Part shown: positions 3,291 to 50,877 of the stretch, piece after piece
Layout of the letters: the number at the start of each line of letters is the position of its first letter
Numbering within the stretch: position 1 is the stretch's first letter
Assembly (NCBI GenBank): GCA_019359375.1
Contig: JAHHHL010000015.1
Coordinates: 1-64,000 of the forward strand
Length of the DNA: 64,000 bases
Reading direction: 5' to 3'
Origin: Lyngbya sp. HA4199-MV5
Lineage (GTDB): Bacteria > Cyanobacteriota > Cyanobacteriia > Leptolyngbyales > Leptolyngbyaceae
Notes under the pieces: model-generated
The model's input: only the letters and a program-made list of their open reading frames with translations
Database searches by the model: none
Told to the model about the DNA's origin: nothing
Translations under genes and position numbers: made by a program

Positions 3291-3296
3291 AGGGAG

Positions 3297-4926: not shown

Positions 4927-5323
4927 GAAGAAGTCAAGCAGTGAGACCGTCACTGGCTGAAAGACACTGAGGAGCTAGCTCTGCGTGTCTATAGTGAAGA
5001 CACGAGTAAAGCCTGAGACCGCTAAAGATGTGTCAATGCGATTTGTCTAAAATACTCTCTCAGAATTCTTAAAGGGCAATTCTAGGGTTTGCTCATCTAA
5101 GCGATCGCCAAAAGCGATCGAAGGTATTTGTCTTGTAGTGTTCCCAATCATATGTATAAATGGAATTAATTCCACTACAATCAGGTTATCGAGAAGGATG
5201 AAAGAGGCAGGGGTCTGCAAACTTCTGCAAGCACTGGAGAATGGCAACAAGAGGGCTGAACATTGGCCCTCTCGTGCTTCAAGTTGTTAGCTGAAAGCAC
5301 ATTGTCTTTTGAATCAACGAGTG
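4927..5323. other. intergenic, no gene seen
   Basis: About 400 bases between the orphan CRISPR array and the IS1-family element. A 67-codon minus-strand frame (5047-5250) has no recognisable features. I see nothing else that I can support. Confidence 0.4.
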
Positions 5324-5338
5324 TTTGATTCGGTAGTC

Positions 5339-5760: not shown

Positions 5761-6051
5761 TTTTTTAGCGCTCACCGTCACTGGTCGAGGCACAGACGCA
5801 TCTTTCGCATTCACGTAGCGTTGCAGCCAAAGCTCAGAAACCCCAGTTACTCTGGCGATTCCTGCCAAAGACAGTCGCTCCAGCAACAGTTTGTCAATTA
5901 AATCCTTTGTGGCTTGGTCAATCACTTTGGTTTGCGGGTCTTGCACAAATTGGCGACCGCAGTCCCGACAGCGATAGTTCTGTTTGCCATTGTGAATTCT
6001 GCCGTTCTTAACGGTACGTTGCGACTCACAGCTTGGACAAGCAACCATCAC
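5749..6051 (-). CDS. IS1-family InsA-like protein
   Basis: A 100-residue protein with the IS1 InsA layout: an N-terminal zinc finger (CPSCESQRTVKNG followed by CRDCGRQF) and a helix-turn-helix near residues 55-80 (LSLAGIARVTGVSELWLQRY). In IS1, InsA alone represses transposition, while frameshifting in an A-run at its 3' end makes the InsAB transposase. The A-run is present here at the codons for the final KKK. Confidence 0.85.
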   Translation of the reverse strand: MMVACPSCESQRTVKNGRIHNGKQNYRCRDCGRQFVQDPQTKVIDQATKDLIDKLLLERLSLAGIARVTGVSELWLQRYVNAKDASVPRPVTVSAKKKGA

Positions 6052-6160
6052 TGCTACCTCCAGAGTGAACTAAACATTCCTATCATTCTATCCTTACCCG
6101 TTTAGGACTACCTTTGATTCTAATACCCAAAGCATTTTCCTTTTTCTCGTCTCTAATTAA

Positions 6161-13154: not shown

Positions 13155-14306
13155 ATGCTGATGCAGAATCAACTGTCGGAAGGGATCGCAACGCTCTCGC
13201 AAGCAAAAGAATCAGTGCCGCAGGAAAAGTTACTACCAGCACTTGATATTCTTTCTCAGCCTAAAGCGCTGACACAAGATTTATTACTATCGCTCATTGC
13301 TGCCCTATCAAACCCCCAGGAGCAAGTAGATGATTTAATCGCCATTGCAAAAGAAATGTTTGCAGCAATGGCATGTATTGCTGAACCTGAACCAAATATT
13401 TTGAGGCTTGATCAAGTCTCAAGCTTTATTGATTGGATACAAGGACGATTAAAGCTCAGGAAGCCTGGTAAGGCAATTGGAGAGACAGGTCTCGGTAAAA
13501 CGTGTGCTTGTCACGCTTGTTTAGAGGAGTTTGAACCAGTCCAACACCCAAACCAACCCTCTGAACGTCCCTTTGTTTATGTTCAGATCGATGAGAATAG
13601 ATGTGCTCCTGGAAGGTTTCTTCAATTAATTCTGATTGCACTTAGAAAACCTACCAGTGGAAATCTTCATCAATTAAAACAGCGTGTCAAGAAATTTTTT
13701 AAGCAATATAAAGTTCAGATATTGCTCGTTGATGAAGCTCACTGTCTACATTTTGATGCACTCAAAACTGCAAGAAGCTTCTATGACGATAAAGATTTAG
13801 GGGTTATTCCTATTTTGATTGGCACAAGCAATCGTTTAGATACTTTGATGGAAAAGGATGAGCAGGTGAATAACCGCTTTGCAAATACCTTTGTTTTTGA
13901 GGAATTAGCTGGTGATAAATTCAGCGGAGTTGTTAAAATCTGGGGCGAAAAGATCATCAGAATGCAAGATCCTCTCATTTCCAAAGATCCTTCAAAAGCA
14001 GGCGGCAAAAAGAGAATTATTTCTCTGTTAAAGACAGGCAAAGCAGGAATTAATAAGGATTTGGCTTCTACCCTGGAAGAAATGACTTCAGGAGAGCTTA
14101 GACTATTAGACAATATTTTGAGGGATGCTGCTGTTAGACTGCTTGAGAAAAAGCTCGGCGAAATCTATAGTTTAGTACTTCAAGCGTTGAAGACCGACAG
14201 CAAAGTATTAGCTTTCGATGCTAAAAAGATTTTGAAAGAAATAAGAATAGATAAATCTTTTCTCCAAAGTATGAAAGGAGAGTATTTAAGAGGAAGAAGC
14301 ATGTAG
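13155..14306 (+). CDS. tnsC: transposition ATPase TnsC
   Basis: A 383-residue AAA+ ATPase. Walker A is GETGLGKT (residues 109-116) and Walker B is LLVDEA with Asp193-Glu194, followed by a sensor region 'PILIGTSNRLDTL'. In V-K systems TnsC forms a filament on the target DNA that links Cas12k-TniQ to TnsB. It lies 90 bases after tnsB on the same strand. The protein is longer than the roughly 280 residues of the best-studied V-K TnsC, with about 80 extra N-terminal residues before the AAA+ core; an internal start is possible but I see no reason to prefer it. Confidence 0.95.
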   Translation: MLMQNQLSEGIATLSQAKESVPQEKLLPALDILSQPKALTQDLLLSLIAALSNPQEQVDDLIAIAKEMFAAMACIAEPEPNILRLDQVSSFIDWIQGRLKLRKPGKAIGETGLGKTCACHACLEEFEPVQHPNQPSERPFVYVQIDENRCAPGRFLQLILIALRKPTSGNLHQLKQRVKKFFKQYKVQILLVDEAHCLHFDALKTARSFYDDKDLGVIPILIGTSNRLDTLMEKDEQVNNRFANTFVFEELAGDKFSGVVKIWGEKIIRMQDPLISKDPSKAGGKKRIISLLKTGKAGINKDLASTLEEMTSGELRLLDNILRDAAVRLLEKKLGEIYSLVLQALKTDSKVLAFDAKKILKEIRIDKSFLQSMKGEYLRGRSM

Positions 14307-34399: not shown

Positions 34400-35368
34400 T
34401 CACTTCTTCCACATCTGCCCTCCCACTAATCTGCTGACGAGTCGTGCGGAACCAATTGAATCGTGCTCAATGCAAGTCACCCGTAAATTAGTAGGATTCA
34501 TTGAACCATCTGGATGCCTTGGTGTAACCGTAAGTTCAGAGTTCTCCAAAGCTTTGCTACAGCCTTTTTCATGCTCGCAGTGTCTACGCAACGATAAAAC
34601 CCGGACAACCCAGAAGGGATGGGGAATACTAACCGTTCCTTTTTGAGGATGTAGTGCTATGAGAGGTTGGGCTGCCACATCATAAATTGATAATCTTCCA
34701 GCTTTATGAGAGTTACACCAGCCGCAAGCTAGACGCAGATTTTCTGGTTTTTCATCTCCACCTTCAGCAAAAGGAAAAACGTGATCAATTTCGATCTGGA
34801 AATCTCGTTTATTAAGCCCATGAGGTTTAAGGTAGTCAATAAATTGCGGTATGCGAAGTTCTTCTGAAATAGTACGTTCTAAAAACTTGTCTATCGCCCA
34901 TCTTGAAAACTGATAACCACAAATCCAGCATCGATGCTCAGAGCCATAAACATCCCAGAGATACTGCTTAATTCGCAGATCAAATGCTGTTCTTTTTCTG
35001 CTTTGCCTTCTTCTAACCTCGTCATTAATTAAACGTGAAATTTGTTTTACAAGTTCTTCACGTTTATTAATGTCTACGGTTGCGAATATAAGTGGAGCTT
35101 CGGCATTTACAGCATGAACAATATGTGAATAGCATGGATATCGCTCCACAAACCTTTCTGGGTCACAAATCGATTCTAAAAACCACTGCGTCCACAGTGT
35201 AGTCATATCAGCACGCAGTAAGGTATCTTGTATACCTGTTACCACATCTGGGATACGATGGTTTGCGATAGCGCTCAGGCTGTTTAATTGCCAAACATTT
35301 TCCCCTCTCCCAGCAGATTTTTCGAGAAATGAACTAATTGCGTCAAAATCCATGACAAATAGGCTCAA
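34400..35368 (-). CDS. HNH endonuclease
   Basis: A 322-residue protein with an HNH nuclease core in the middle. A first zinc pair lies in HRCWICGYQF near residue 145. The catalytic part IEIDHVFPFAEGGD, then ENLRLACGWCNSHKAGR, lies near residues 198-230. Its ATG overlaps the stop of the DGQHR gene by four bases, so the two are coupled. In this context a nuclease that acts on unmodified or phosphorothioated DNA is likely, but that is inferred. Confidence 0.82.
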   Translation of the reverse strand: MSLFVMDFDAISSFLEKSAGRGENVWQLNSLSAIANHRIPDVVTGIQDTLLRADMTTLWTQWFLESICDPERFVERYPCYSHIVHAVNAEAPLIFATVDINKREELVKQISRLINDEVRRRQSRKRTAFDLRIKQYLWDVYGSEHRCWICGYQFSRWAIDKFLERTISEELRIPQFIDYLKPHGLNKRDFQIEIDHVFPFAEGGDEKPENLRLACGWCNSHKAGRLSIYDVAAQPLIALHPQKGTVSIPHPFWVVRVLSLRRHCEHEKGCSKALENSELTVTPRHPDGSMNPTNLRVTCIEHDSIGSARLVSRLVGGQMWKK

Positions 35369-37122
35369 TCCTTAATTTCTAAGCGATAAAGATTAGCTTT
35401 AGGAAGCGACTTTGGATTTTTTCGATAGTCTGTCCATATTTTCGCCCACTGCTTTCGCCGCGCTGGTGCATCTTTCCTAACGCCCTTAAGCTGCCAATCT
35501 TTATTGAAATAGCTAGGGTCTACGCCGTCTAACCAATCATCAACCAACTTAGACACATGCTGAATGTCATCTATGCTGTAACGACGATCGCAAAGAACTT
35601 GGAAGAAATCTGCCACCAGTATTGTCAATGACACTTTATTGAAAATATTGGAACTTTTGGGAGATCCCCAGTAATTGCTTGCTCCTTCATCATTAGTGTT
35701 AGCGAATTTGTCTCGAATCTTTTTCCAGAATTCACTGAACACATCACGCCAAGGGCCATCAAGTTGCCGCCAATATTCAAAGGGGGTTGAAAACCCATGA
35801 GTTTCATAATCTGCGACGAGTCCAGACCGTTCCAGATGATTTTCTTTCCAAATTTGAGCGTAGTCGTTTTTTTCTCCAAAAAGCTTGCCACCCTTCAAGT
35901 CTTGAAAGATTTGGACAAGCTGGAGAAGCACACTCCATTGAAGTAAATCTTTATTCTCAGAAGTTGCAGAAGTTAGTCCACGTTCAACTTTATTGAAGAA
36001 TGGGCTGTCTGGATTTCTTGTAAAATATGCTACCGCTCTCGATTCTTCTAGCTGAATACCAGCATCTTCTAACCGCTTAGAAACTCTTGCCAATTCATCG
36101 TTTGATAAGCTAGTTGAGACAATTGTACCTAGAAGAGCCTTGCCAATTGGAGTTGCTTTCTGGTTAACAACTACGAACTGAAAAACATGTTCTGCTGGAT
36201 CATCTGTAATTAACAAGGAAATTGGTAATCGTCGGGCAATTTTTGCTTCAATTTGTTGTTGGGCTTGATTGGGATCTGCACCACTAATCACAGCTTGCTC
36301 AAGCTCCTCACTGTAAGGAGGCTTTTCAGCCAAAAACTTTGCAGAATTAACTGCTCCTCGTAGGCGATGCTGTCCGTCTACTACTACGATCGGACGTAGG
36401 AATGAGATCATTGCATCCTTAGAGTATTCGAGAAATTGCTCACCTTCAAAAGAACTACCAATTTCCTCTAAAATCTTTACCCTCGCAGCAACTTCCTCCC
36501 AGAAGTCAAGAATATGAGACTCGTCTGAAAATACAACACCTGTTGGTTCCTGGATATCAGAATTATCGCTAAATTCTGATGCTTCTAATTCCTCCTCCTC
36601 AGCGAAATCGATATCTGTTTCTGCATCTTGAGACGTAACAATAAAATTAGTTCGTTGTTTTAATTCAACAAGTAATCGGTCTGAAGGTTTTTGTGTTGTG
36701 AGGCTGGGAACTCGCTGTTCAAGATCCGCCTTCACTCTTCTAAGCAGCTCAAGTAAGGTCAGTTGTTTAAGAGGCTCAATTTGAATTGATAGGGTTCCGG
36801 TTTCAGCAAATGGAGATTGATTAGCCTCAGGGTCAGGTTCAAAATGCACAACTTCTGGATTAGCTACGCGAGTCGCACATAGCAATGGATTCTGAATGAC
36901 ATTCTTATCACTGCTATAAAACTCGACCAATTCATTAATCCGCTTTCCGTTCTCCTCACGTTGGAAGCCTGTAGTTTCCTGGCTTCCAATTTCTTTTTTC
37001 TGAGGGATGCCAGCCCAAGCGTCAATTTCGGTTGCTGGGGCAGCAAAAAGAATTAACCAGCCTCCTGCATCGGTTTGCCGGATACGAACTGCCCTGTATG
37101 ATACTGACTCTAATTTTGTCAT
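35365..37122 (-). CDS. DGQHR-domain protein, second copy
   Basis: A 585-residue protein with a DGQHR motif (IVVVDGQHRLRGAV) near residue 248. It shares with DndB the following QKATPIGKALLGTIVSTSL-type region of the superfamily, but is much longer and has an acidic insert before the motif. DGQHR proteins act in DNA phosphorothioation and related modification systems. Its coupling to the HNH gene suggests a two-component unit. Function is not known. Confidence 0.75.
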   Translation of the reverse strand: MTKLESVSYRAVRIRQTDAGGWLILFAAPATEIDAWAGIPQKKEIGSQETTGFQREENGKRINELVEFYSSDKNVIQNPLLCATRVANPEVVHFEPDPEANQSPFAETGTLSIQIEPLKQLTLLELLRRVKADLEQRVPSLTTQKPSDRLLVELKQRTNFIVTSQDAETDIDFAEEEELEASEFSDNSDIQEPTGVVFSDESHILDFWEEVAARVKILEEIGSSFEGEQFLEYSKDAMISFLRPIVVVDGQHRLRGAVNSAKFLAEKPPYSEELEQAVISGADPNQAQQQIEAKIARRLPISLLITDDPAEHVFQFVVVNQKATPIGKALLGTIVSTSLSNDELARVSKRLEDAGIQLEESRAVAYFTRNPDSPFFNKVERGLTSATSENKDLLQWSVLLQLVQIFQDLKGGKLFGEKNDYAQIWKENHLERSGLVADYETHGFSTPFEYWRQLDGPWRDVFSEFWKKIRDKFANTNDEGASNYWGSPKSSNIFNKVSLTILVADFFQVLCDRRYSIDDIQHVSKLVDDWLDGVDPSYFNKDWQLKGVRKDAPARRKQWAKIWTDYRKNPKSLPKANLYRLEIKD

Positions 37123-37166
37123 CTGCGATACTCAATGGAGGTTGACCAGTTAAAAACATTTTTAAT

Positions 37167-37670
37167 TTAGGGTACAGGCTCTTGCCAGCTTGAATTTTGT
37201 TCGATCGCCCCCCTCAATAATTTTGCATAGGTTCTGAGAAATTCTTCCACATGATAGGGTCTTGAGTCGAGCTTTTCTGCCAAGTAGTCGTAGCCGCCGC
37301 TGGAATACTCATTAAGCCTATCCATTCCTGCATCAGTCAGGTTGGTTGGGTTTTGAGGGTTCACCAAATCGACAAAGAGCTTGCGAACCTCATCCTTTTC
37401 CGTCACACTGATCCCTGACCGGGAAAGCTCTGCCCTAATCAGCAGTCCAATGATTAACCTCTGATAAGGTTTATAATCGCTTACAAAGTTATCTGTAAAG
37501 TCCGTGACTTCAGAGCCGCGCTTAGTTGGTTCGCTTCTGCGCCCCGTTGCTAGACCCACCATGAGACAAAAATAGTAGAGATCAAATTTAGTCTTGATTG
37601 GCTTCTGATCTCGGATGTTAGAGAACCAATTTTCGGCATCTTGCCGCATTCTGAAGTTTTTAAATGCCAT
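37167..37670 (-). CDS. small helical protein of the putative Dnd restriction set
   Basis: A 167-residue helical protein (FKNFRMRQDAENWFSNIRDQ, then YYFCLMVGLATGRRSE). The 'F.LYYFCLMVGLA..R' pattern is like small proteins found next to dnd genes and loosely like DndE. I cannot assign a family with confidence. It starts five bases after the SMC-like ATPase gene ends. Confidence 0.65.
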   Translation of the reverse strand: MAFKNFRMRQDAENWFSNIRDQKPIKTKFDLYYFCLMVGLATGRRSEPTKRGSEVTDFTDNFVSDYKPYQRLIIGLLIRAELSRSGISVTEKDEVRKLFVDLVNPQNPTNLTDAGMDRLNEYSSGGYDYLAEKLDSRPYHVEEFLRTYAKLLRGAIEQNSSWQEPVP

Positions 37671-37675
37671 AAACC

Positions 37676-39649
37676 TTAACCCTCTGCCTCATCCAAATCA
37701 AAACGATCGAAATACGCTTTTCCTTCAACCAGAACAGCATTTGGGGTTTTGGTAACACCTGAAGCTGGCAGAGATTGCACCAATGTCTCGGTGCCTGCTG
37801 TACGCCTAAACAGAGTCAGAAATTTCGTCTTATTTTCAGAACTTGTATGGATTACATCTGTAAATCCAGCCCGTTCCGACGAAATTGTAAACGCCACGAA
37901 TTGCTTGCAAAGGCTCGGAATCAGCTTAGCAATCTCTCGCCGCACCTCCATCGAGAGCGGGTTCGCTGGGCTATCTACAATGAGTGGGAACTGATGCTGC
38001 CCCCGACTTAGCAGGGTTGTCAGAAACGTATAACCAACCGATAAGGTTTGACCAACACTGGACCCCTCCTGATTCCGGAGCTTAAGAGAGCGATCGATTT
38101 TTTCAATCCGAATTGGATCACGCGCCAGCACCTTTTCCAGTCGCTGGTTGCATTCATCGGCGATCGCTACCCGCAAATTTGCCTGGGCTTTTTTCAAGGC
38201 TAGATCGGCGATCGCCAACAAAACATCCGTTTTAGCTCGAAGCTCCAGTGTGCCTGTGATTTCTGCCAGATCCTTCTCCGACTCCTTCAGAAGCTTTCTA
38301 AGCGATGCCAAACAGCATGTTTTTTCATCATCACTAGAACTGGCGGGACGGTCGATGTCCCTAAGCAAATTCTCCAGCACCTCTTTGCGTTTGGTTTTCA
38401 GATCACGCTCCTCGGTCCACCCCCTTAACTCGTCATCCCCCTTGTCGATTAGCTCTTGTTCCAGAACCCTAACGGCAGTCTCCGCTAATTTACTCGCTGA
38501 AACTGCTTGCTCCAACTGCTCCAGTTTCTGGGTTAAATCTGCCGCTGTCTCATTTCCATCCTGTCGCACCTGGACATCAATATCCTGCTTCAACGCATTC
38601 AGAATGCCCGATGTATCTTCAGCCAGATAAAGTTCGCGTCGTTTACCAATTACCTCACGCGAATGGCTGTCCAGCGGGCGACCACAAATACATTCCTCCT
38701 CTTCTAAAAGCTCGCTGAAAAATTGACTAGAGGTGCTGGCAGGCAGTCGCAGACGGTCTAGCTGAAGCTTTAGTTCACTCAGCGATCGGGCAAAAGCCTC
38801 ATGCAGTAGGTGCGGCTGGCGAATTCGAGACATGACCTCCAATGCCGAACTCTCAACCTGATTGCGAGCGTTGATTTCATACTGCTTTTTCTCCCCAAGT
38901 TCCTCACGCAAACTCTCATCAGTCCCAATCCGTTCACTAATTCTCTGTTCTAGTCCGTCTATTTCGGGTTGTAAAACGTCTAATTCTGCGATCGCTTTAT
39001 CGCGTGCCTCTGTTACTTGAGCGACGCGGTTCTTTAACGTATCAACTTTTTTCCTGCGCTGGCTTAGCCCCTTCTCAGCTTTCGCAGTTTTATTTTTAGT
39101 GGCTGTCTTCCAGGCATTTTCTGCAATTCGCTGAATGTCTTGGAGCAGGTAGAGTTGAAATAATGCATCGATCGCCTTGGATGCCTCTGATTCATTAGAG
39201 TCCAGTAGCTTGTCGGCAAATTCGCCATCAAAGACAAACAGTTGGACGAATCGGGGATCGAGAAACCGCTTAACCTCTGGTGGTGGTTCCCAACCTGAGC
39301 TGATGCCTCCACTGCCGACTGAGGTCGTTCGATATTCAGCCTTTCCGACATCAAAATTTAGCGCCAATTCAAACGTCAGAGGCTGGTCGTCAACCCTCAG
39401 ATTCAGGATAAATTTACCCTCTGAATGTGATTCACCGGGACGGCGCAGGCTTTTGATTCTCCCTGGAGTCCACCCTTGAGCTTCGCCATTCATCGCAGCT
39501 CGAATCATCGTTAGGGTTGTGGTTTTACCTGTGCCATTGGGCATCTGAATCAGCGACACGGGCGCGATCCTATCACCAGTCATTAATTCAATTTCAACAT
39601 CGGGACAGCGCAGCCCTTCACTGCTCCAACCTGCTAACTCAATCTTCAT
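37676..39649 (-). CDS. SMC-like ATPase, DndD-related
   Basis: A 657-residue ABC-type ATPase. Walker A is MPNGTGKTTTL near residues 37-47. Two coiled-coil stretches flank a zinc-hook-like centre (EEEECICGRPLD near residue 322). The C-terminal lobe has 'EGSSVGQTLSVGYTFLTTLL' as signature and 'LIVDSPANPLS' as Walker B/D-loop. It differs from dndD in the hook and in a conserved 'VQLFVFDGEFADKLL'. It forms a unit with the helicase gene and the small gene between them. Comparable ATPase-helicase pairs accompany non-DptFGH dnd systems. Confidence 0.8.
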   Translation of the reverse strand: MKIELAGWSSEGLRCPDVEIELMTGDRIAPVSLIQMPNGTGKTTTLTMIRAAMNGEAQGWTPGRIKSLRRPGESHSEGKFILNLRVDDQPLTFELALNFDVGKAEYRTTSVGSGGISSGWEPPPEVKRFLDPRFVQLFVFDGEFADKLLDSNESEASKAIDALFQLYLLQDIQRIAENAWKTATKNKTAKAEKGLSQRRKKVDTLKNRVAQVTEARDKAIAELDVLQPEIDGLEQRISERIGTDESLREELGEKKQYEINARNQVESSALEVMSRIRQPHLLHEAFARSLSELKLQLDRLRLPASTSSQFFSELLEEEECICGRPLDSHSREVIGKRRELYLAEDTSGILNALKQDIDVQVRQDGNETAADLTQKLEQLEQAVSASKLAETAVRVLEQELIDKGDDELRGWTEERDLKTKRKEVLENLLRDIDRPASSSDDEKTCCLASLRKLLKESEKDLAEITGTLELRAKTDVLLAIADLALKKAQANLRVAIADECNQRLEKVLARDPIRIEKIDRSLKLRNQEGSSVGQTLSVGYTFLTTLLSRGQHQFPLIVDSPANPLSMEVRREIAKLIPSLCKQFVAFTISSERAGFTDVIHTSSENKTKFLTLFRRTAGTETLVQSLPASGVTKTPNAVLVEGKAYFDRFDLDEAEG

Positions 39650-39845
39650 CGCTGCCTCCAGCCACGTTTACGGTAATCGCAGCCCGGACATTTTCTAAAT
39701 ACCCTTGCTCATCATTGGCGCTGAGTTCAGATGCACTCATCGCGTTCAACCATGCTTCGATTCGCTTGGCAACTTTTTCTGTCTGCCCAGCCTCACGAAC
39801 GGACTCTTGAATTGCCCTTACTACCTCATGATCCAAATTAGACAT
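39639..39845 (-). CDS. small acidic protein between helicase and ATPase genes
   Basis: A 68-residue helical, acidic protein (MSNLDHEVVRAIQESV... NVAGGSDED). I do not recognise it. It overlaps the ATPase start by 11 bases and begins two bases after the helicase stop, so translation of all three is probably coupled. Confidence 0.6.
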   Translation of the reverse strand: MSNLDHEVVRAIQESVREAGQTEKVAKRIEAWLNAMSASELSANDEQGYLENVRAAITVNVAGGSDED

Positions 39846-39847
39846 TT

Positions 39848-41878
39848 CTACTCCACCCTCCTGATTTGAGAAAGTTCAGATAGCCAGATACGGCGATCGT
39901 CATCCGCATTAAACTCACTCTCGTCATCCTCTACTGATCGCACGAAATCGATGACCATTGCCCGTTTATCAGGAGAATTAGGGTCAGAACGGAGGCAGCG
40001 ACCAATCCGTTGAATAGTCTCAAGTCGTGCCCGCGCTGATGAAAATAAAATGACGGTTTTAAGATTTCGGATATCAATGCCTTGCGAAATACGATGGCAA
40101 GTAATCAAGCAATCAATTTTGCCCCTTGCAAACTCGACCAAATTACGCCGATCGTCCTCTGCATAATAGGTTCGATAGCGATGGGTGTAGCCATGAAGTG
40201 TTTCTAAAATTGGCTCCCCAAAGGCTTTATCTTCCACAAACAGAATGGCGGACTCAATAATTTGAGGATTAGTTTGTAAAAATTCAGCAAAGACTTCCGG
40301 CTTCTTCTCAGCCGTTTTATACACCCGCGCAAGCTCTGTCCACAACTCCTGCTTTGTCATAGGTCTACCCTCCCGCTGTCGTGCCGAGCGTTTAGCGTAG
40401 ACCTGCCGCAGTCGTTGGCGATCGCCCTCCGTCAATGGATAGGTCAGCGGAATATAGTCAAACTCACACAAGATGCCGCGTTCGATCGCGTCCTTTAGCC
40501 CAAACTCAAAGAAAACATTGCCAATCTCATCAAAAATAAATTTTGTTCCTTCCTGGTCATACTCCCGCTCAGGCGTGGCGCTTAACCCCAAGCGATAACC
40601 AAAGGCTTGATGTTGTCCTGCCAGTTGCGATCGTAGGGATGGGCTTCCTAGGCCATGCACCTCATCGTGAATAATAATCAGCCGCTCTTTTTGGTCGGGT
40701 TCAAGACGGCTAAATAGAGAAGCCAGTTGTTCGCGAGATATCACCAAAACAGCCCGCTTCGGATTGAGGGCAAACTCTCCCAGTTCATGATGCTGAGCAT
40801 AATGTCTCAGCACCCGATAAGGCTGACGACGCTTGATTGCCCAGGATTCAATTTCCTTTCGCCATTGATCTAGCAAATCTGTGCCGTCAGTGCTGATAAT
40901 AATCCCATCAATTCGCCCCTGTTCGTCTAAAACTGACAGAGCTTTAATCGCTGTACGAGTTTTCCCCGTTCCCGTTGCCATCTCCAAAACACCATGCCGG
41001 ACTTCGAGGAACTTAGCGATCGCCTCATCCTGGTGTCGCCACTGATGTTCAACTTGTCCCTCATTTAGAGATTTTTCTGACTCATGCCCGTAGCCAGTTG
41101 GTTTCTCCTTTACAGTTGGTAGGTTGAAGCCATTTTTGGGGGTGATTACTGGCTTCTCATCCGGTGCTTTACTGCGAATCAGTGCAGCCAATTCAGGAGA
41201 CAGTGGTAACACCTTCAGCCCAACAGCCCTGGCTGACCAGGCTTCCTCAAACTGTTCTTGCTTAATTTGAACCCGCTCTTCATCTCCAGCCATCCAGCTT
41301 CGGTAGACATCGATCGACTCATAATTACGTTCATAGCCATGCTCTGACTCATTGGCTGAGCCAGTAAACGCAACCTGATCACCCCAAGGGAATTGAAAGA
41401 TGCCAATCTTTTCATGGAAAATTCCGGGTTGCTCAATGTGCTCTGGAAAAGCAAACCGCAGAATGAGATGATCGTTTGCTACCATCCAGGCAAACAAGCG
41501 CACCCTCGCTTTGACATCATTGGGTAAGGAGTCCGCTAAAATCTCCTGTACCAGGCAGTCAACTGAAACTTGCCGCAGTTGCTGACGCTCTTCTTCGTTG
41601 AGTGCTTTTTCCAAAGCCTCACGATCGTCGTCGGAAAGCTCAGGAGAAATGAGCAAATGAATGGTTACGGATTCTGTAGCAAAGCGAGGCAACGCTTCCA
41701 ACCAGGCAACTAATGCCTTGCTAGAAAAATAACCAACGGCTCGCCGGTATTCTGAGCAGTACTTTAGACAGGGGGCAAAAAACTCTTTGCCAAGACTAGA
41801 AGCTCCACTGCGGTAGTGACTGGATAGCCCCCGTATAACTTCCTGCCCCTCTGAATGGTTGTTTATCCTTTCAGTCAT
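39848..41878 (-). CDS. PLD-domain DEAD/DEAH-box helicase
   Basis: A 676-residue protein. Residues 1-230 look like a phospholipase-D-type nuclease domain: SSHYRSGASSLGKEFFAPCL, then 'IHLLISPELS' and FHEKIGIFQF followed by FTGSANESEHG, the HxK...N...E part. The helicase has Walker A MATGTGKTRTA near residue 293, motif II as HDEVH near 390, motif III GLSATPERE, and motif VI QRIGRCLRSDP. This layout is found in several restriction systems, where the helicase moves along DNA and the PLD domain cuts it. Here it would be the restriction arm. Confidence 0.85.
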   Translation of the reverse strand: MTERINNHSEGQEVIRGLSSHYRSGASSLGKEFFAPCLKYCSEYRRAVGYFSSKALVAWLEALPRFATESVTIHLLISPELSDDDREALEKALNEEERQQLRQVSVDCLVQEILADSLPNDVKARVRLFAWMVANDHLILRFAFPEHIEQPGIFHEKIGIFQFPWGDQVAFTGSANESEHGYERNYESIDVYRSWMAGDEERVQIKQEQFEEAWSARAVGLKVLPLSPELAALIRSKAPDEKPVITPKNGFNLPTVKEKPTGYGHESEKSLNEGQVEHQWRHQDEAIAKFLEVRHGVLEMATGTGKTRTAIKALSVLDEQGRIDGIIISTDGTDLLDQWRKEIESWAIKRRQPYRVLRHYAQHHELGEFALNPKRAVLVISREQLASLFSRLEPDQKERLIIIHDEVHGLGSPSLRSQLAGQHQAFGYRLGLSATPEREYDQEGTKFIFDEIGNVFFEFGLKDAIERGILCEFDYIPLTYPLTEGDRQRLRQVYAKRSARQREGRPMTKQELWTELARVYKTAEKKPEVFAEFLQTNPQIIESAILFVEDKAFGEPILETLHGYTHRYRTYYAEDDRRNLVEFARGKIDCLITCHRISQGIDIRNLKTVILFSSARARLETIQRIGRCLRSDPNSPDKRAMVIDFVRSVEDDESEFNADDDRRIWLSELSQIRRVE

Positions 41879-41883
41879 AGATG

Positions 41884-42207
41884 TTATTCTTCCGAAAAAT
41901 CTATAAGTGACCTCAAGGTTTGTTCCAAAGCAGTTTCCCTCACCTGCTGTTGATACTGGTTCAACAATTCATCTAGCGAAGATTGCTCCTGTTCTATTGC
42001 AAAAGGTAGGGAGAGCTGCTCCTGACTCGGCGACGATTTCAGCATCCAGCGGTATTGCGGGTCTTGGGTGACCAATGGTTGCAGCGAACTGTACAGGTAA
42101 TGATTCACTTCCCTACGGCTTATGCCTAGGACGTTGGCGATCGCTCTAGATCGAAGTGGCACACCCTGTCTCAGCACATTGATAATCCTAGACTCGACCT
42201 TATTCAT
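41884..42207 (-). CDS. small HTH protein at the head of the restriction set
   Basis: A 107-residue protein. The first half is a winged-helix-type DNA-binding domain: 'RIINVLRQGVPLRSRAIANVLGISRREVNHYLYSSL' followed by a wing-like 'LVTQDPQYRWML'. The C-terminal half is a glutamine/leucine-rich helix that could dimerise. It ends five bases before the helicase start and is the first gene of the minus-strand run, so it may regulate the operon or act as an accessory subunit. Confidence 0.7.
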   Translation of the reverse strand: MNKVESRIINVLRQGVPLRSRAIANVLGISRREVNHYLYSSLQPLVTQDPQYRWMLKSSPSQEQLSLPFAIEQEQSSLDELLNQYQQQVRETALEQTLRSLIDFSEE

Positions 42208-43027: not shown

Positions 43028-43933
43028 CTACTGTTTACTTATTAAAGATTCTAAGGCTTGCTTAGCAACCGTCTCTGCTCTTTGAGAAGTAACCTTTTGG
43101 TAGCGCAGGGTTGTCTGAATATTTTGGTGTCCCATTAATGCTCTTAGTTCCTCGATCCCCATTAAACCAACCCGTTCTGTCGCAAAGGTATGGCGCAAGT
43201 CGTGGATTCGGATGCCTTTCAGTGCTGGTTCCTGCGAAATCGAATCTGACCAAGAGTCATGAGCAGTACGATAACTGAGCCGCGAAACTTCTAGGGTAAA
43301 AGGCTGCTGTGCGGTAAACAGAGCAGGGCAACCCTGATGTCGCTCATATTTGAGATACTTCTCCAGAGTTTGAGCAACATCCTGACTATAGAAACACCAC
43401 CTCTGCTTATTTCCCTTGCCCAAAACTTGAAACTTGCGTTGGGCAAAATTAAGGTCATTCAGGTCTAAAGCCAAAAGCTCTGAAATTCTTGCACCTGTTC
43501 GATGCAATAGGTTGGTGAGAGCATTAATCCGAAAATCTGGAGCAACGAGTTGATACAAAACTGTAAGTTGCTCTGGAGTCAGATAACGAATCACCGTGTC
43601 AGTTGCATGTTCACCCTTAGCGGGATCGGGTTTACGACGCTTTAAGCGTGCGATCGGGTTTGATCTAATGTGTCCCTGCTCAACCGCAAAATTGAACAGT
43701 GCTTGAATGATTGCCTGATGTCGATGATGGGTAGTGTACGTAATGTCAGTCAGGCTATTGAGATACTCTTCGATTGCCTGTCGAGTCAAAATCTCGATCG
43801 GCATTTGACCGTACTCCCGTAGAAAAGGCATTAAGGTCGATTCGTAAGAGCGCGTAGTACTTTGAGCTAGCCCCAACCGACTGAGAAACGCTGTAGTGAC
43901 AGTAGCAACAGAAATAGCGATTTGACTTGTCAT
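43028..43933 (-). CDS. tyrosine recombinase, XerC/D-like
   Basis: A 301-residue tyrosine recombinase of normal length. An N-terminal SAM-like core-binding domain is followed by the catalytic domain with the first Arg in RTGARISELLAL, HDLRHTFAT with His and Arg, GHQNIQTTLRY with His and the nucleophile Tyr. V-K transposons lack TnsA and insert as cointegrates, so a recombinase inside the element would be a natural resolvase. This role is inferred; it could also serve another mobile unit in the cargo. It is divergent from the XRE regulator gene, with a palindromic site between them. Confidence 0.88.
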   Translation of the reverse strand: MTSQIAISVATVTTAFLSRLGLAQSTTRSYESTLMPFLREYGQMPIEILTRQAIEEYLNSLTDITYTTHHRHQAIIQALFNFAVEQGHIRSNPIARLKRRKPDPAKGEHATDTVIRYLTPEQLTVLYQLVAPDFRINALTNLLHRTGARISELLALDLNDLNFAQRKFQVLGKGNKQRWCFYSQDVAQTLEKYLKYERHQGCPALFTAQQPFTLEVSRLSYRTAHDSWSDSISQEPALKGIRIHDLRHTFATERVGLMGIEELRALMGHQNIQTTLRYQKVTSQRAETVAKQALESLISKQ

Positions 43934-44755: not shown

Positions 44756-46870
44756 ATGAGCAAATCCACATTTCTCTTCCGGTTAGATGCGTTGGGGGAC
44801 GCAAGCCAAATCAGAGAAGAGAATCGGCGCTACTACTGGGAACTGATGACGCAGCAGCATACTCCATTAATCAATCAGTTAAATCTCAAGGTGGCTCAAC
44901 ACCCTAACTTTGCTGATTGGCAAATTAATAATGCGGTGAATGCTGACGAGTTGAAAAGTTTATGGCGATCGTTTAAAGAACATCCACAATTTGAAACGAT
45001 GCCTGAACGTGCTTTTGTCTCAGCACGGCTGGTCGTCGGCGATACGTACGAATCTTGGCTAGCTCTACAAGGAGATCGACAAGAAGAACTGGCAAAGCTA
45101 TCCAATTCCCTTGAAGTCCTTAAAACAGATGCTGAGCTGGTAGCGATCAGTGGTTGCAGCCTGGATGCGATTTGTAGCAAAGCCAGAGAAATTTTGAGCC
45201 AGGCAAATACCCAAGTTGCTGGCGAGAGCAAGAAGAAAAGTAAGAAGGCAATTAACGGCGGCATTTACAAGGTTTTGTATGAGAAGCACCGTATTGCAGA
45301 CGATCCACTAAAGAAGTGTGCAGCGGCATATCTGATTAAAAACAGATTTGAAATCAAAGGTGATGAAACTGAGGAAGACATCGAGCATCTGAAAAATCGC
45401 ATCCATTGCAAGGAAAAGCAGATTGAGCTGCTTCTGAAGCAGTTGCAAAGCCGTCTACCCAAAGGTCGCCCTTGGGTTGGAGATGGCATTCTAGATGAGA
45501 TTAAGTCCATTGGCGTTGTTGAAGATGAGGCTGAGTGGAATTTAGTCGAATCAGCACTGCTCAAACAGCAGACTTTTCTGCCACATCCAATGTTGTTTCA
45601 TAGTAGTGATGATTTGATCTGGTTTGAGCATGAAAGACCCCCTTCTCAAGATTCAACAACTGAGGATGAACGAAAGCCCAACGCTGAATCTAGCAGGCGA
45701 GTCTGTGTCCGCTTCAAAAGCTTTGATGAGAAATATGCGTTTGAAATCTCTGGTGATCGTCGTCACCTCCACATCCTTCAACAGGCACTGAGGGAGCGTA
45801 TGATTTATGACAGCGATATAGATGGCAACACATCTAAGTTATTTTTGGTGCGATCAGCAACCTTGATCTGGAAAGAGTACAGGAAAAATGAGAATAGGAT
45901 TATACGTCGCCGAAAAGCTGCAAACAAGCGAGCGAAGCGGATAGTTCAATCTATCGATAAAGCTCCTGAGATACAATCTGCTCCTGCATTTTACAATCCA
46001 GAGTTTCCCTGGAATCGCTACCAACTGTTTCTACATTGCACCGTTGAAACTGAGTTCTTGAGCCAGGAGGGCACTGAACTCGTTATTCAACAGCAGAGGA
46101 AGCCTATTATCAAGGCGCTTCAAACTTTAGAAGAAAGAATGGCTGAGTCGGAAAACAAAGGCGAATCAACACAAACTCGCAAAGCGAATCATAGTCGTAA
46201 GACAGGAACCCTGAGACGAATTGACAGTTACGATAATAACTATGATCGTCCGAGCAAACCACTCTACGCAGGGATCCCCCATATTCTCACTGGCGTTGCT
46301 CTTGGCTCTGGTGGACTAGTAACAGTAACGATCGTAGATGCTACTTCAGGTAAAATTCTGGGCTGTCGGGGGCTCAAGGCTCTGCTAGGCGATAACTACA
46401 GACTCGTGAATCGTAGACAGTTCCAACGGCAGCTAAACTTGCGTCGCCGTACTGAACGACAGAAACGGGGTGCAAGTAGCCAATCTGGAGAATCGAACTT
46501 AGGTGACGCTATAGATCAACACACTGCCAATGCGGTGCTTGACTTCGCTAAAAAGCATCATTCAGGCTGTATTGTCTTACCTGACATGAAGGATTACAGA
46601 GTACGACAACAAAGCGAAATTGCGGCGCTTGCAGAGCGAGAGTGTTCTGGTTGGAAAGGCATTGAAAAGCGCTTTGCTAAGGCTCAGAATATGAAAATCC
46701 ATGCGTGGAGCTATGGGCGATTGATGGAATACATCCGCAATCAAGCTCACAAAGGGGGGATTTTGGTCAAGATTGGTCAGCAGCCGCTCTACGGCAGTTC
46801 CCAGGAACAGGCGGGAAAGATGGCGATCGATGCGTACCAGAATAAAACAGTTCCAAAAAACTCGCCCTAA
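44756..46870 (+). CDS. cas12k: Cas12k effector, RuvC-inactive
   Basis: A 704-residue type V-K effector. It guides transposition by binding the crRNA-tracrRNA and target DNA without cutting. The RuvC remnants are visible: 'LTGVALGSGGLVTVTIVDATSGKIL' has Ala at the place of the first catalytic Asp, and 'GCIVLPDMKD' has Asp at the second site, so no cleavage is expected. The C-terminal 'AQNMKIHAWSYGRLMEYI' is well conserved in the family. It is about 60 residues longer than the 640 or so of the best-studied Cas12k proteins, with a charged middle insert (ENRIIRRRKAANKRAKR). Confidence 0.96.
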   Translation: MSKSTFLFRLDALGDASQIREENRRYYWELMTQQHTPLINQLNLKVAQHPNFADWQINNAVNADELKSLWRSFKEHPQFETMPERAFVSARLVVGDTYESWLALQGDRQEELAKLSNSLEVLKTDAELVAISGCSLDAICSKAREILSQANTQVAGESKKKSKKAINGGIYKVLYEKHRIADDPLKKCAAAYLIKNRFEIKGDETEEDIEHLKNRIHCKEKQIELLLKQLQSRLPKGRPWVGDGILDEIKSIGVVEDEAEWNLVESALLKQQTFLPHPMLFHSSDDLIWFEHERPPSQDSTTEDERKPNAESSRRVCVRFKSFDEKYAFEISGDRRHLHILQQALRERMIYDSDIDGNTSKLFLVRSATLIWKEYRKNENRIIRRRKAANKRAKRIVQSIDKAPEIQSAPAFYNPEFPWNRYQLFLHCTVETEFLSQEGTELVIQQQRKPIIKALQTLEERMAESENKGESTQTRKANHSRKTGTLRRIDSYDNNYDRPSKPLYAGIPHILTGVALGSGGLVTVTIVDATSGKILGCRGLKALLGDNYRLVNRRQFQRQLNLRRRTERQKRGASSQSGESNLGDAIDQHTANAVLDFAKKHHSGCIVLPDMKDYRVRQQSEIAALAERECSGWKGIEKRFAKAQNMKIHAWSYGRLMEYIRNQAHKGGILVKIGQQPLYGSSQEQAGKMAIDAYQNKTVPKNSP

Positions 46871-46939: not shown

Positions 46940-47215
46940 TGTTGCACACGACGCAAGTCTTAGGAAATGGGACAGGTTTGTTGCTTTCCGTCCCTGTTAC
47001 TGCCCGCTTACTCACGCTACCCCTAAGCAAGGTAGGACAATTTGCCGATATGGTGAGTTTGCGAATCTCTACTGTTGTCAATAAGCATTTGTTTATGGCG
47101 TCAGTACAGCAAGATTATGTATCAGACCAAGTAATGGCGAAGATATGTGGCAGTCCGAATCGCCCGGTGAATCCACCGGGACTTCCCCTAAATTTTTGGC
47201 AAATCAAAGCGGGGT
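46940..47215 (+). ncRNA. tracrRNA region of the V-K system
   Basis: The 500 bases between cas12k and the array hold no convincing gene but have the layout of known V-K tracrRNAs. There is an early hairpin (GGGACAGG ... TTTCCGTCCCTGTTACTG), a middle part with several paired segments, and a late hairpin GAATCGCCCGGTGAATCCACCGGGACTT followed by CCCC, here split as CCCGGTG / CACCGGG for its stem. Bounds are approximate. A GCGGGGTGAAAAA sequence at about 47208-47220 resembles the 3' half of the repeat. A 92-codon frame over this region (46939-47217) is very likely spurious. Confidence 0.65.
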
Positions 47216-47385: not shown

Positions 47386-47931
47386 GGCGCAATAGCCTTC
47401 CTAGACGCGGGTAAGCTGAAAGTTCAGAATTTTGGAGTCGATCGCCAGATTCCCGATAGGCGCAATAGCCTTCCTAGACGCGGGTAAGCTGAAAGAACTG
47501 GAGTTTGCGATACTCCCAGAACAGGGCAAAGGCGCAATAGCCTTCCTAGACGCGGGTAAGCTGAAAGATAACAGCAGCACCGTCGGCAAAAAGCTGGTTC
47601 ACGGGCGCAATAGCCTTCCTAGACGCGGGTAAGCTGAAAGATCATCCCGTCCATGCGTGTTAGTCCTCCAGTTCAAGGCGCAATAGCCTTCCTAGACGCG
47701 GGTAAGCTGAAAGAGATACCAGGTCCAGCTTCCGACTGGGTTGAAGATTGGCGCAATAGCCTTCCTAGACGCGGGTAAGCTGAAAGAATGTTTGTGACCG
47801 TGTACCAAATGCCTGGTACAGGGCGCAATAGCCTTCCTAGACACGGATAAGCTGAAAGATTGGTACTATGACGAATTTCAAAAGCTGATTAACAGGCGCA
47901 ATAGCTTTCTTAGATGCGGGTAAGCTGAAAG
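47386..47931 (+). CRISPR. V-K CRISPR array, 8 repeats and 7 spacers
   Basis: Eight 37-base repeats start at 47386, 47459, 47531, 47604, 47677, 47750, 47822 and 47895. Each begins GGCGCAATAG and ends GGGTAAGCTGAAAG. The first six are identical; the seventh and eighth carry changes (ACACGGATAAG and TTTCTTAGATG versions), so the leader is on the cas12k side and the right end is the oldest. Spacers are 35 or 36 bases. The repeat length and GAAAG end agree with V-K systems. The array is transcribed in the same direction as cas12k. None of the seven spacers resembles the tRNA-Cys sequence. Confidence 0.95.
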
Positions 47932-48049
47932 ATGTACAGAATCATTTCCCCGTTTTTACAAATTACGTGGCTCAGTAGCCTTTAGATATAGCAACGTATA
48001 CGGATACTTCTTACATCCATACCCTAAAACTGCTCCGCAACATCTAACA

Positions 48050-48102
48050 TTTGCAGACCCTTGCCTCTTTCACTTCCCCTGGGCTCATTGTAGGGGAAAT
48101 CG
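48050..48102 (-). ncRNA. delocalised crRNA unit aimed at tRNA-Cys
   Basis: On the minus strand a degenerate repeat (48102-48067) ends AGGGGAAGTGAAAG, resembling the canonical GGGTAAGCTGAAAG, and is followed by the 17-base spacer AGGCAAGGGTCTGCAAA (48066-48050). The same 17 bases occur in the anticodon arm of tRNA-Cys at 48428-48444, next to a GTA PAM. Short truncated repeat-spacer units outside the array that send V-K elements to tRNA genes are known. This unit has the expected short spacer, PAM and placement beside the transposon end. Confidence 0.88.
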
Positions 48103-48241
48103 GTCAGTTTTTCTACCATGTTGTACAACAACCATAAGACCAGACAATTTCTGCCAGTCCGCAGTTAAAATTACATGGAAGGCTAATTTTTTTTTGCATG
48201 AGCCTTAATGCTCATCCATCAAGTTGCTTAACTTCACGAGT

Positions 48242-48382
48242 TGACATGCAATCCTCCGTTTTTACATACGGATTGACATCAATGCTTTTTCGTTGTGGAC
48301 ATTAAGTGCTTCGTTCTGGACAAAGTATCCTTCGCTATGACATTTAATTCTTCGCCACGGACACTTATTGCTTCGCTCTACA
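48242..48382. repeat. TnsB-type binding sites at the transposon right end
   Basis: Six sites in one orientation. The outer four, KGACAnnnATnnCTTCGC-like 18-mers, start at 48297, 48318, 48338 and 48359, that is every 20-21 bases, two turns of the helix. Looser inner copies start at 48242 and 48274. The last is followed by TCTACA ending at 48382, the expected terminal TACA. Five bases after it read GAAAC, then tRNA-Cys begins 11 bases on. The end sits 62 nt from the PAM, in the known 60-66 nt window for V-K insertion. Confidence 0.88.
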
Positions 48383-48393
48383 GAAACTTCGGA

Positions 48394-48464
48394 AGGCGGC
48401 ACCCGGATTTGAACCGGGGATGAGGATTTTGCAGACCCTTGCCTTACCACTTGGCGATGCCGCC
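48394..48464 (-). tRNA. tRNA-Cys (GCA)
   Basis: A 71-base tRNA on the minus strand beginning GGCGGCATCGCCAAGTGGTA. The acceptor stem GGCGGCA pairs with TGCCGCC, the anticodon loop has GCA in CTGCAAA, and the T arm contains GGTTCAAAT. The base after the stem is T, the usual Cys discriminator. It appears intact. The protospacer of the delocalised guide covers its D-stem/anticodon part, so the tRNA gene remains whole after insertion behind its 3' end. Confidence 0.96.
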
Positions 48465-48639
48465 GAAATCAAGAAGGATTTACCAGAATTAGACTATACC
48501 AAATTTTATGCAATTCTGTTCCATTGGTGCGTCGCTAAATTGAGGCAAACGCACATGTTTCTTCATCTTTTAGAAACCAACCTGGTAAAGATAACACCTT
48601 GAGCAGATAGTGACCATCCCAACCCACGGCACTGTTCCT

Positions 48640-48892
48640 CTAATGGAGGATAGCATCAAAGCTACGAGAGATCAGGAGTCCATGGATTGAGACAGGGCGA
48701 TCGCACAATCCCATCGCCACCGCTGGAGTGATACCTCTGGCTAACCCCCAATGCGGACGAACCCAGTGATGGATCAAGCGTTGGACATCCAACACTCGTT
48801 GTAAGCCCTGGACATGCTTGGCGTAAAGGTTCTGTCGTCTACGATAAGCACTACAGCGTCGTCTGAGCGCACTGTTTTGAGCCTCGTCATCG
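48640..48892 (-). pseudogene. IS transposase, C-terminal remnant
   Basis: An 83-codon minus-strand frame with stop at 48640-48642 reads NSALRRRCSAYRRRQNLYAK, then LQRVLDVQRLIHHWVRPHWGL and VSIHGLLISRSFDAILH. This is the end of a DDE transposase common in cyanobacterial insertion sequences. No start and no catalytic Asp residues are present. It lies just outside the CAST, beside tRNA-Cys. Confidence 0.65.
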
Positions 48893-49158: not shown

Positions 49159-50877
49159 ATGTTGCGACTGGAGCACGTCAGCAAAATTTATCCCACTGGC
49201 GAAGTGCTGAAAGACATCAACTGGGAAGTCAAACCCGGCGATCGCATTGGTTTAGTGGGTGTCAACGGTGCGGGCAAGTCGACGCAACTGAAAATCATTG
49301 CAGGCGAAACCGAGCCTACCGCAGGCGAAATCATCCGCCCTGCCAGCCTGCATATTGCCTACCTGACGCAGGAATTTGAGGTCGATCCAACTCGCACCGT
49401 CCGCGAAGAATTTTGGCGGGCTTTTGGCGAAGCGAACGATGTCCATGTCGCGCTCTCAGACGTGCATCGCAACATGGAAACCGCAAGCCCCGAAGCATTG
49501 GACGATCTCATCCACGCAATGGATCGCTTGCAGCGGCAGTTTGAGGCAATGGATGGCTATGGGTTAGATGCTCGCATTGAGAAAATCATGCCCGATCTGG
49601 GTTTTGACCTGGAGGATGGCGATCGTCTCGTGAGTGCCTTCAGCGGTGGCTGGCAGATGCGGATGAGTTTGGGCAAGATTCTGCTACAAAAGCCCGATTT
49701 ATTGCTGCTGGACGAGCCGACCAACCATTTGGATCTGGAAACCATCGAGTGGCTGGAAACCTACCTGAAAGGGCTTTCGACCCCGATGGTGATTGTCTCC
49801 CATGACCGCGAGTTTCTCGATCGCCTCTGCACCCAAATTGTGGAAACCGAGCGCGGCGTTTCCACCACCTATTTAGGCAACTACTCCGCCTACCTTCAGC
49901 AGAAAGAAGAAATGCGGGATGCTCAACTGAGCGCTTACGAACGGCAGCAGAAAGAACTGGAGAAGCAACAGGCGTTTGTCGATCGCTTCCGTGCCAGCGC
50001 GACCCGCAGCACCCAGGCAAAGAGCCGCGAAAAGCAACTCGATAAAATTGAGCGTCTTGAGGCTCCTGATGGTGGTATGAGAACCCTTCATTTCCGCTTT
50101 CCACCCGCACCTCGGAGTGGTCGCGAAGTGGTGGAAATCAGAAATATGACCCACGCCTACGGTGACAAGATTCTGTTTTTAGACGCGAACCTGCTGCTTG
50201 AGCGGGGCGATCGCGTGGCGTTTTTAGGTCCCAACGGTGCGGGTAAATCCACCCTGCTGCACCTGATGATGGGGATGGAAAAGCCCACTGAGGGCACGGT
50301 CACGATCGGCGATCACAACGTCCTCCCTGGCTACTTTGAACAAAACCAGGCAGAAGCGCTCGACTTGCAAAAAACGGTCATCGAAACCATCCACGACGAA
50401 GTGCCCAAATGGACAAATGAAGAAGTCCGCACCCTATTAGGACGCTTTCTCTTCAGTGGTGACAGTGCCTTCAAGAAAGTCGAATCCCTCAGCGGTGGCG
50501 AAAAAGCACGTCTTGCCCTTGCCAAAATGCTCCTCCAACCCGCGAATCTCTTGATTCTGGATGAGCCAACGAACCATCTGGATATTCCCGCCAAAGAGAT
50601 GCTGGAAGAAGCACTTCAGCACTACGATGGCACCGTGATTATCGTGTCGCACGATCGCTATTTTATCTCCCAGGTCGCCAACAAAATTGTCGAAATTCGT
50701 GATGGTGAACTCATCCTCTATCGCGGCGATTATCACTACTACTTAGACAAGATTGCTGAAGAAAAAGATAAGGCGAAACTAGCGGCGATCGAAGCCGAAA
50801 AAGAAGCAAAAGCTGCCGAAAAACGCGCCAAGCAAAAGGAAAAAGAAAAGGCGAAGAAAGCGCAATCAAAAGCTTAA
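49159..50877 (+). CDS. ABC-F family ATPase
   Basis: A 572-residue protein of two fused ABC domains without membrane parts. Walker A motifs are GVNGAGKST near residue 35 and GPNGAGKST near residue 358. The signatures are FSGGWQMRMSLG and LSGGEKARLALAK, each followed by LLLDEPTNHLD or LILDEPTNHLD. An arginine-rich linker lies between, and the C terminus is a lysine/glutamate-rich coil. ABC-F proteins act on the ribosome (translation control or antibiotic protection); this has the layout of the Uup/EttA group. A GGAG ribosome site precedes its ATG. Confidence 0.95.
   Translation: MLRLEHVSKIYPTGEVLKDINWEVKPGDRIGLVGVNGAGKSTQLKIIAGETEPTAGEIIRPASLHIAYLTQEFEVDPTRTVREEFWRAFGEANDVHVALSDVHRNMETASPEALDDLIHAMDRLQRQFEAMDGYGLDARIEKIMPDLGFDLEDGDRLVSAFSGGWQMRMSLGKILLQKPDLLLLDEPTNHLDLETIEWLETYLKGLSTPMVIVSHDREFLDRLCTQIVETERGVSTTYLGNYSAYLQQKEEMRDAQLSAYERQQKELEKQQAFVDRFRASATRSTQAKSREKQLDKIERLEAPDGGMRTLHFRFPPAPRSGREVVEIRNMTHAYGDKILFLDANLLLERGDRVAFLGPNGAGKSTLLHLMMGMEKPTEGTVTIGDHNVLPGYFEQNQAEALDLQKTVIETIHDEVPKWTNEEVRTLLGRFLFSGDSAFKKVESLSGGEKARLALAKMLLQPANLLILDEPTNHLDIPAKEMLEEALQHYDGTVIIVSHDRYFISQVANKIVEIRDGELILYRGDYHYYLDKIAEEKDKAKLAAIEAEKEAKAAEKRAKQKEKEKAKKAQSKA

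What the first reader, a model, noticed from the sequence alone, without database searches (positions are those of the whole stretch)
48050..48464. Delocalised 17-nt guide, PAM and insertion distance all agree with RNA-guided homing to tRNA-Cys
On the minus strand a decayed repeat ending GAAGTGAAAG is followed by the spacer AGGCAAGGGTCTGCAAA. The identical 17 bases lie in tRNA-Cys (48428-48444) next to GTA, which satisfies the GTN PAM of Cas12k. The transposon end at 48382 leaves 62 nt between PAM and end, inside the 60-66 nt window reported for V-K systems. The main array has no matching spacer. The tRNA choice and short spacer fit the known use of truncated units for attachment-site homing, and this gives a complete readable example.
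Basis: partly seen in the sequence, partly recalled or inferred. Interest (0 to 1): 0.85.

Follow-up and report, generated by a model that had tools for sequence, protein, structure and literature searches.

The report
Transposon homing guide written backwards
A cyanobacterial jumping element sits beside a tRNA-Cys gene and carries a 17-letter copy of part of that gene that likely serves as the guide RNA sending it there; in this element and two relatives the guide is written in the opposite direction to the 37 comparable ones found, so it would need its own start of transcription.

Summary
Minus strand 48050-48066 is identical to tRNA-Cys 48428-48444, follows a truncated repeat ending GAAAG, and has a GTA PAM at the target; the transposon end TGTAGAGCG begins 62 nt past that PAM. 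Cas12k, TnsB, TnsC and TniQ match ShCAST proteins. This is a type V-K CAST and the unit is its attachment-site ("anchor") guide.

Published V-K anchors read toward the transposon left end, as do 37 of the 40 anchors that two scans of 57 loci located. This one reads away from it, on the tRNA strand. The other two inverted anchors belong to the nearest Cas12k relatives (66-69% identity; one 100/100 group). The repeat is not decayed: it is predicted to pair better with the predicted tracrRNA than array repeats do. The same left end abuts tRNA-Cys in 9 genomes, 58-76 nt past the PAM. Units with other truncated repeats, in this genome and relatives, carry the same 17-nt guide.

Expression is untested; evidence for a separate promoter is weak. 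No right end was found, so present mobility is unknown.

The parts
48050..48066 (-). 17-nt anchor spacer, identical to part of tRNA-Cys; reads away from the transposon end
48067..48079 (-). Truncated repeat R* (GGGGAAGTGAAAG); bases 48080-48072 predicted to pair 9 of 9 with the predicted tracrRNA anti-repeat
   Evidence: pairing is a prediction
48087..48115 (-). Promoter-like site TAGAAA-17-TACAAT just upstream of R*; weak, not above the shuffled expectation
   Evidence: 1 found, mean 1.6 in shuffles
48428..48444 (-). Protospacer inside tRNA-Cys, PAM GTA at 48445-48447
48394..48464 (-). tRNA-Cys (GCA), the attachment gene, directed toward the transposon
48289..48382 (-). Transposon left end: TGTAGAGCG terminus at 48382 and repeated TnsB-site-like motifs TGTC-N-CGAAG
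47386..47931 (+). CRISPR array, 8 repeats, pointing toward the left end
47181..47189 (+). Predicted tracrRNA anti-repeat ACTTCCCCT inside a block conserved downstream of cas12k in three relatives
   Evidence: prediction
44756..46870 (+). cas12k (704 aa)
   Evidence: NF038191 538 bits; ShCAST Cas12k 338 bits
10836..13064 (+). tnsB (742 aa)
   Evidence: PF09299; ShCAST TnsB 489 bits; FACHB-471 homologue 78% over residues 1-481
13155..14306 (+). tnsC (383 aa)
   Evidence: PF05621/PF13401; ShCAST TnsC 109 bits
14453..14974 (+). tniQ (173 aa)
   Evidence: PF06527; ShCAST TniQ 164 bits
4740..5221 (+). Remnant of another CAST: array-like repeats and a unit GATGAAAG + AGGCAGGGGTCTGCAAA (5205-5221), both on the plus strand; the unit has 1 mismatch to the window tRNA-Cys

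Best explanation
The minus-strand unit at 48050-48079 is a truncated repeat plus a 17-nt spacer identical to part of the neighbouring tRNA-Cys gene; it likely encodes a short guide RNA that, with Cas12k and the predicted tracrRNA, would direct this type V-K CRISPR-associated transposon to insert 62 nt past the GTA PAM, and unlike the 37 canonical units found in the comparison it is inverted, reading away from the transposon end. Shown: the identity, PAM, spacing, V-K proteins, orientation, and the same inverted orientation in two relatives of one Cas12k group. Inferred: that the unit is transcribed, either from its own start just upstream of R* or by read-through from tRNA-Cys, which lies upstream on the same strand; that R* pairs with tracrRNA; that Cas12k binds the tRNA gene and TnsC, TniQ and TnsB join the left end there. 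Because array and unit lie on opposite strands, they cannot share one sense transcript, so in this group the homing guide is likely expressed separately from the array guides.
For: 17-nt identity with GAAAG before it and GTA at the target. V-K proteins. Left end at tRNA-Cys in 9 genomes, 58-76 nt past the PAM; of 8 ends with the left-end type second site (TGTCCG), 7 are at tRNA-Cys, and of 9 with the other type (TGTCAC), 0 are at a tRNA. Inverted unit in G010 and FACHB-471 with the same left end. R* pairs better with the predicted anti-repeat than the array repeat in 3 of 3.
Against: No transcript evidence. The promoter-like site is not above shuffles. In FACHB-471 and G010 the guide differs from the local tRNA-Cys at one position. 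For FACHB-471 the R* pairing is matched by 79 of 500 shuffled R*. No right end in the window. Only three inverted units are known, two of them near-identical upstream, so the inversion may reflect one event inherited without selection.
Confidence: 0.8

Rival explanations
1. The inverted unit is a relic: one inversion flipped a working anchor, and the element now rests at tRNA-Cys by inheritance or was put there by another CAST's machinery, without this unit being used.
For: No right end found; weak promoter evidence; other CAST remnants with the same guide exist in this genome. Other elements of the group have lost the anchor (L099 by our scans) or are left-end stumps.
Against: R* and all 17 guide bases are intact and the guide matches its own tRNA exactly; inverted units persist in three genomes whose Cas12k are only 66-69% identical to the window's; cas12k, tnsB, tnsC and tniQ are open.
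Confidence: 0.15
2. The 17-nt match is a duplicated piece of tRNA-Cys, like an attachment core left by an integrase, and not a guide. A tyrosine recombinase gene lies nearby at 43028-43933.
For: A tyrosine recombinase is encoded in the element and tRNA genes are common integrase targets (established knowledge; also PMC11406308).
Against: The match begins exactly after GAAAG at 11 places in 9 of 58 genomes (up to 1 mismatch) and ends at 17 nt; it does not include the tRNA 3' end, where integrase cores usually lie (recalled); the transposon end carries TnsB-site-like repeats.
Confidence: 0.03
3. Chance match.
For: None found.
Against: 0 of 100 shuffles reach the observed 3 matches even with 3 mismatches allowed; the same unit recurs in relatives.
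Confidence: 0.01

Closest known systems
Type V-K CAST with anchor spacer (PMC9938897, passages seen; review PMC11406308, passages and its section 3.4.2)
   Same: Cas12k, TnsB, TnsC, TniQ; truncated repeat of about 12 nt plus 17-nt spacer near the left end; GTN PAM; protospacer in a tRNA directed toward the element; PAM to left end within the reported 46-82 nt; array pointing to the left end.
   Different: The anchor unit is on the opposite strand and reads away from the left end. tnsB has other genes upstream and no right end was found there.
ShCAST (solved structures)
   Same: TnsB 489, TnsC 109, TniQ 164 and Cas12k 338 bits.
   Different: Window TnsB is 742 aa against 584, and TnsC 383 against 276; the Cas12k group sits on a long branch (1.18 changes per column).

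Membership tests
Type V-K CAST | Cas12k effector | tested here: met
   NF038191, 538 bits against a cut-off of 150; ShCAST Cas12k 338 bits. Loss of nuclease residues was not examined.
Type V-K CAST | TnsB, TnsC and TniQ of V-K type | tested here: met
   ShCAST chains are the best PDB matches.
Type V-K CAST | No TnsA | not tested
   No dedicated TnsA search was made; only part of the window's ORFs were searched against families.
Type V-K CAST | CRISPR array pointing to the left end, with tracrRNA between cas12k and array | tested here: met
   Array direction; conserved block downstream of cas12k in three relatives. The tracrRNA itself is predicted.
Type V-K CAST | Left end with repeated TnsB sites next to a tRNA gene | tested here: met
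Type V-K CAST | Right end next to tnsB | tested here: inconclusive
   No end motif found near tnsB in the window or in the FACHB-471 stretches scanned; the window starts at contig base 1.
V-K anchor unit | Truncated repeat plus 17-nt spacer matching a protospacer outside the left end with GTN PAM | tested here: met
V-K anchor unit | PAM to left end 46-82 nt (PMC9938897) | tested here: met
   62 nt.
V-K anchor unit | Unit read toward the left end (usual layout in PMC9938897; a description of arrangement, not of mechanism) | tested here: not met
   Unit and tRNA are both on the minus strand; the same in G010 and FACHB-471. I therefore file it as a variant.
V-K anchor unit | Transcribed and used to guide transposition | not testable with these tools
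   Needs RNA and transposition assays.

The most novel reading that the evidence does not exclude
One clade of V-K CASTs has put its homing guide under separate control by flipping it: an independent promoter, or read-through from the very tRNA gene it targets, makes the guide, so homing is switched separately from array-guided jumps onto other DNA, and the truncated repeat is tuned to win the tracrRNA over the array repeats.
Probability: 0.3. Interest if true: 0.72.

Novelty: new variant of a known kind. Interest (0 to 1): 0.52.

Why it matters
How V-K elements keep homing guides apart from array guides is open. In the usual layout anchor and array lie on one strand and could share a transcript; here they cannot. 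This group is therefore a natural test of whether an anchor guide needs its own promoter and whether R* pairing decides which guide Cas12k loads. The arrival of several CAST lineages with the same 17-nt guide makes tRNA-Cys in this genus a good place to study competition between CASTs for one site.

Tried and rejected
Right end. Motif scans of the window and of three stretches of the FACHB-471 contig (L152, L157, L158; bases 14001-60983) plus L098 found no right end there. A right-end-like sequence on contig C52 of the same genome shows no contig-end overlap with the window contig, and the bases outside it (GATAG) differ from those outside 48382 (GAAAC), so I did not treat them as one element.

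A shared promoter upstream of canonical anchors: no position stood out in 39 units. A TACAAT-like hexamer at -26 is in 3 of 3 inverted units if CACAAT is accepted, and in 1 of 39 canonical units at up to 1 mismatch; two of the three inverted units are near-identical there.

R* pairing stronger than array repeat as a general rule: rejected. Of 29 canonical loci, 3 had no repeated array repeat; in the other 26, R* was stronger in 10, equal in 2 and weaker in 14.

Target of the conserved second unit (ACTAAGCGTGACGATCC) in relatives: 5 of 386 genomes match PAM plus spacer at up to 2 mismatches; 3 of those 5 have a changed PAM and none is convincing.

Array spacers against the loci held at that point: two hits at 2 mismatches, neither with a GTN PAM.

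Survey hits not counted. Relaxed 3-mismatch hits in L119 (one canonical, one inverted) and L170 (one inverted) were taken as chance. L139 was counted as canonical though it rests on 2 mismatches. Units found by pattern only and not counted: G018, G004, G002 C24, C84 and window 5205; none of them is in the inverted sense.

The empty-site idea could not be tested: flanks past tRNA-Cys aligned only briefly.

Full report
Observation. The 17-mer, its GAAAG-ended truncated repeat, the tRNA-Cys target with GTA PAM and the transposon end at 48382 are present as stated. The PAM-to-end distance is 62 nt. The array has 8 repeats, and the first 17 nt of its spacers match nothing in the window at up to 2 mismatches.

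Identity. The window encodes Cas12k and TnsB, TnsC and TniQ, each matching ShCAST chains. In FACHB-471 (L098, JACJOC010000036.1) a TnsB 78% identical over residues 1-481 lies on the contig that carries its cas12k, which ties the window's tnsB to this kind of element. So this is a type V-K CAST and the unit is an anchor guide as described in PMC9938897 (passages only) and the review PMC11406308 (passages; section 3.4.2).

Orientation. PMC9938897 describes the anchor as read toward the left end. I scanned 50 loci downstream of cas12k for a GAAAG-led 17-mer with a partner flanked by GTN (up to 2 mismatches): 34 canonical, 3 inverted (window, G010, FACHB-471), 13 with none found. A relaxed scan of 18 loci (11 of those 13 plus 7 new) added 3 canonical ones; its 3-mismatch hits in L119 and L170 I took as chance. 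That makes 37 canonical and 3 inverted among 57 loci. Forty of the loci come from a search of 386 genomes of the phylum, 45 of which matched the Cas12k model; I chose 40 of its matches by hand, so the sample is not random, and near-copies are among them. In a tree of 41 Cas12k proteins the three inverted elements and L099, in which I found no tRNA-Cys anchor, form one group at 100/100 on a long branch (the program warns that its nearest neighbours are unsure). The genome-contig scan found 2 close relatives, L098 and L099. A search of 42 genomes of the order found, besides the window, three matches of 67-72% identity (G010, G437, which is L099's contig by length, and a fragment in G008) and three of 34-37%; two of these last three belong to loci with canonical anchors and so does the third.

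Is the unit likely to work? Nine bases (48080-48072) are predicted to pair 9 of 9 with a conserved block downstream of cas12k, which I take as the tracrRNA anti-repeat. Predicted duplex energies for R* are -16.5 (window), -13.8 (FACHB-471) and -16.5 (G010) kcal/mol, against -9.3, -9.3 and -9.5 for the array repeats; over the longer tracrRNA stretch they are -16.5, -17.2 and -17.2 against -12.3, -11.6 and -13.0. Shuffled R* did as well in 3, 79 and 13 of 500, so the effect is clear in two of three. A promoter-like site ends 7 nt before the paired stretch, but such sites are as frequent in shuffles (1 found, mean 1.6). No terminator-like site was found in 47800-48700, so read-through from tRNA-Cys is possible. 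Neither route is shown.

Repeated use of the site. tRNA-Cys was found in 54 of 58 genomes. The same left end follows it in 9 genomes at 58-76 nt (FACHB-471 is one and lies outside the 58). A scan of the 58 for this end gave 26 places in 15 genomes: 8 within 400 nt of tRNA-Cys, 1 near tRNA-Ala, 17 near no tRNA found. Ends whose second site begins TGTCCG number 8, 7 at tRNA-Cys. Ends with a TGTCAC second site number 9, none at a tRNA, and are probably right ends. GAAAG plus this 17-mer (up to 1 mismatch) occurs at 11 places in 9 of 58 genomes, with several different R* forms, so several CAST lineages use one protospacer. This genome has three such units: the window's, 5205-5221, and contig C84 near a broken cas12k. 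It also has a CAST on contig C89 with a canonical anchor to tRNA-Ala.

Limits. The right end is missing. A block at 1565-4265 is partly shared (88% over 183 nt; 83% over 1005 nt) with the stretch just upstream of FACHB-471's tnsB, which suggests cargo between right end and tnsB and a right end beyond the contig start; this is inference. Literature: searches and 77 of the held library listed no report of an inverted anchor that I could see, but I opened only two papers; the preprint of Hsieh and Peters 2021 (cited in PMC11406308) is outside the library and Saito et al. 2021 (recalled) was not looked up, so I cannot say that the inversion is unreported.

Verdict. The inversion, shared by one Cas12k group, is a new variant worth a test at the RNA level.

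Noticed in passing
window 4267-5221: End-like repeats (4267-4640, the kind seen at the tRNA-Cys left end in G006), an array-like stretch (4740-4930) and a unit with the same 17-nt guide (5205-5221, 1 mismatch): remnant of one or more other CASTs.
   Followed up: partly
L016 / L001 (G000:C84, 1812-4593): Broken cas12k in several pieces with an array and a unit carrying the exact 17-nt tRNA-Cys guide, in the same direction as its array; no tRNA found in the 20 kb held.
   Followed up: partly
L015 (G000:C52, 473-2239): A right-end-like sequence of this element type appears to interrupt another Cas12k reading frame.
   Followed up: partly
L015 15136-19138: Cluster of 32 ARAGORN tRNA genes in about 4 kb on the same contig, like the cyanobacterial L-array named in PMC9938897.
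   Followed up: no
L174, L175, L176 (FACHB-471, G010, G024): A second isolated unit at the array end, in the usual direction, with conserved R* GGGAAGTTGAAAG and spacer ACTAAGCGTGACGATCC (1 mismatch in G024); no target found in 386 genomes. It is not in the window's genome at up to 2 mismatches.
   Followed up: partly
G022:C241:4427-4661, G022:C223:2738-2972, G003:C36:71293-71528: Pairs of opposed transposon ends of this type 235-236 bp apart: possible miniature non-autonomous elements.
   Followed up: no
L064 (G004) 129-1584: A left end of this type at tRNA-Cys, with a different CAST's canonical unit 1.4 kb behind it: stacked insertions at one site.
   Followed up: partly
L098 9400-9725: A small helix-turn-helix-like reading frame upstream of cas12k on the opposite strand in FACHB-471, the place where known CAST regulators lie; its family was not searched.
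   Followed up: no
window 34400-42207: Cargo with matches to PLD/helicase, DndD-like, DGQHR-domain and HNH proteins: possibly a defence island.
   Followed up: no
window 5332-6112: Insertion sequence with inverted ends and a flanking TTTGATTC duplication, seen by eye.
   Followed up: no
window 50628-50727: ARAGORN tRNA-Ser(CGA) call inside a 572-aa reading frame and not found by Rfam: probably false.
   Followed up: no
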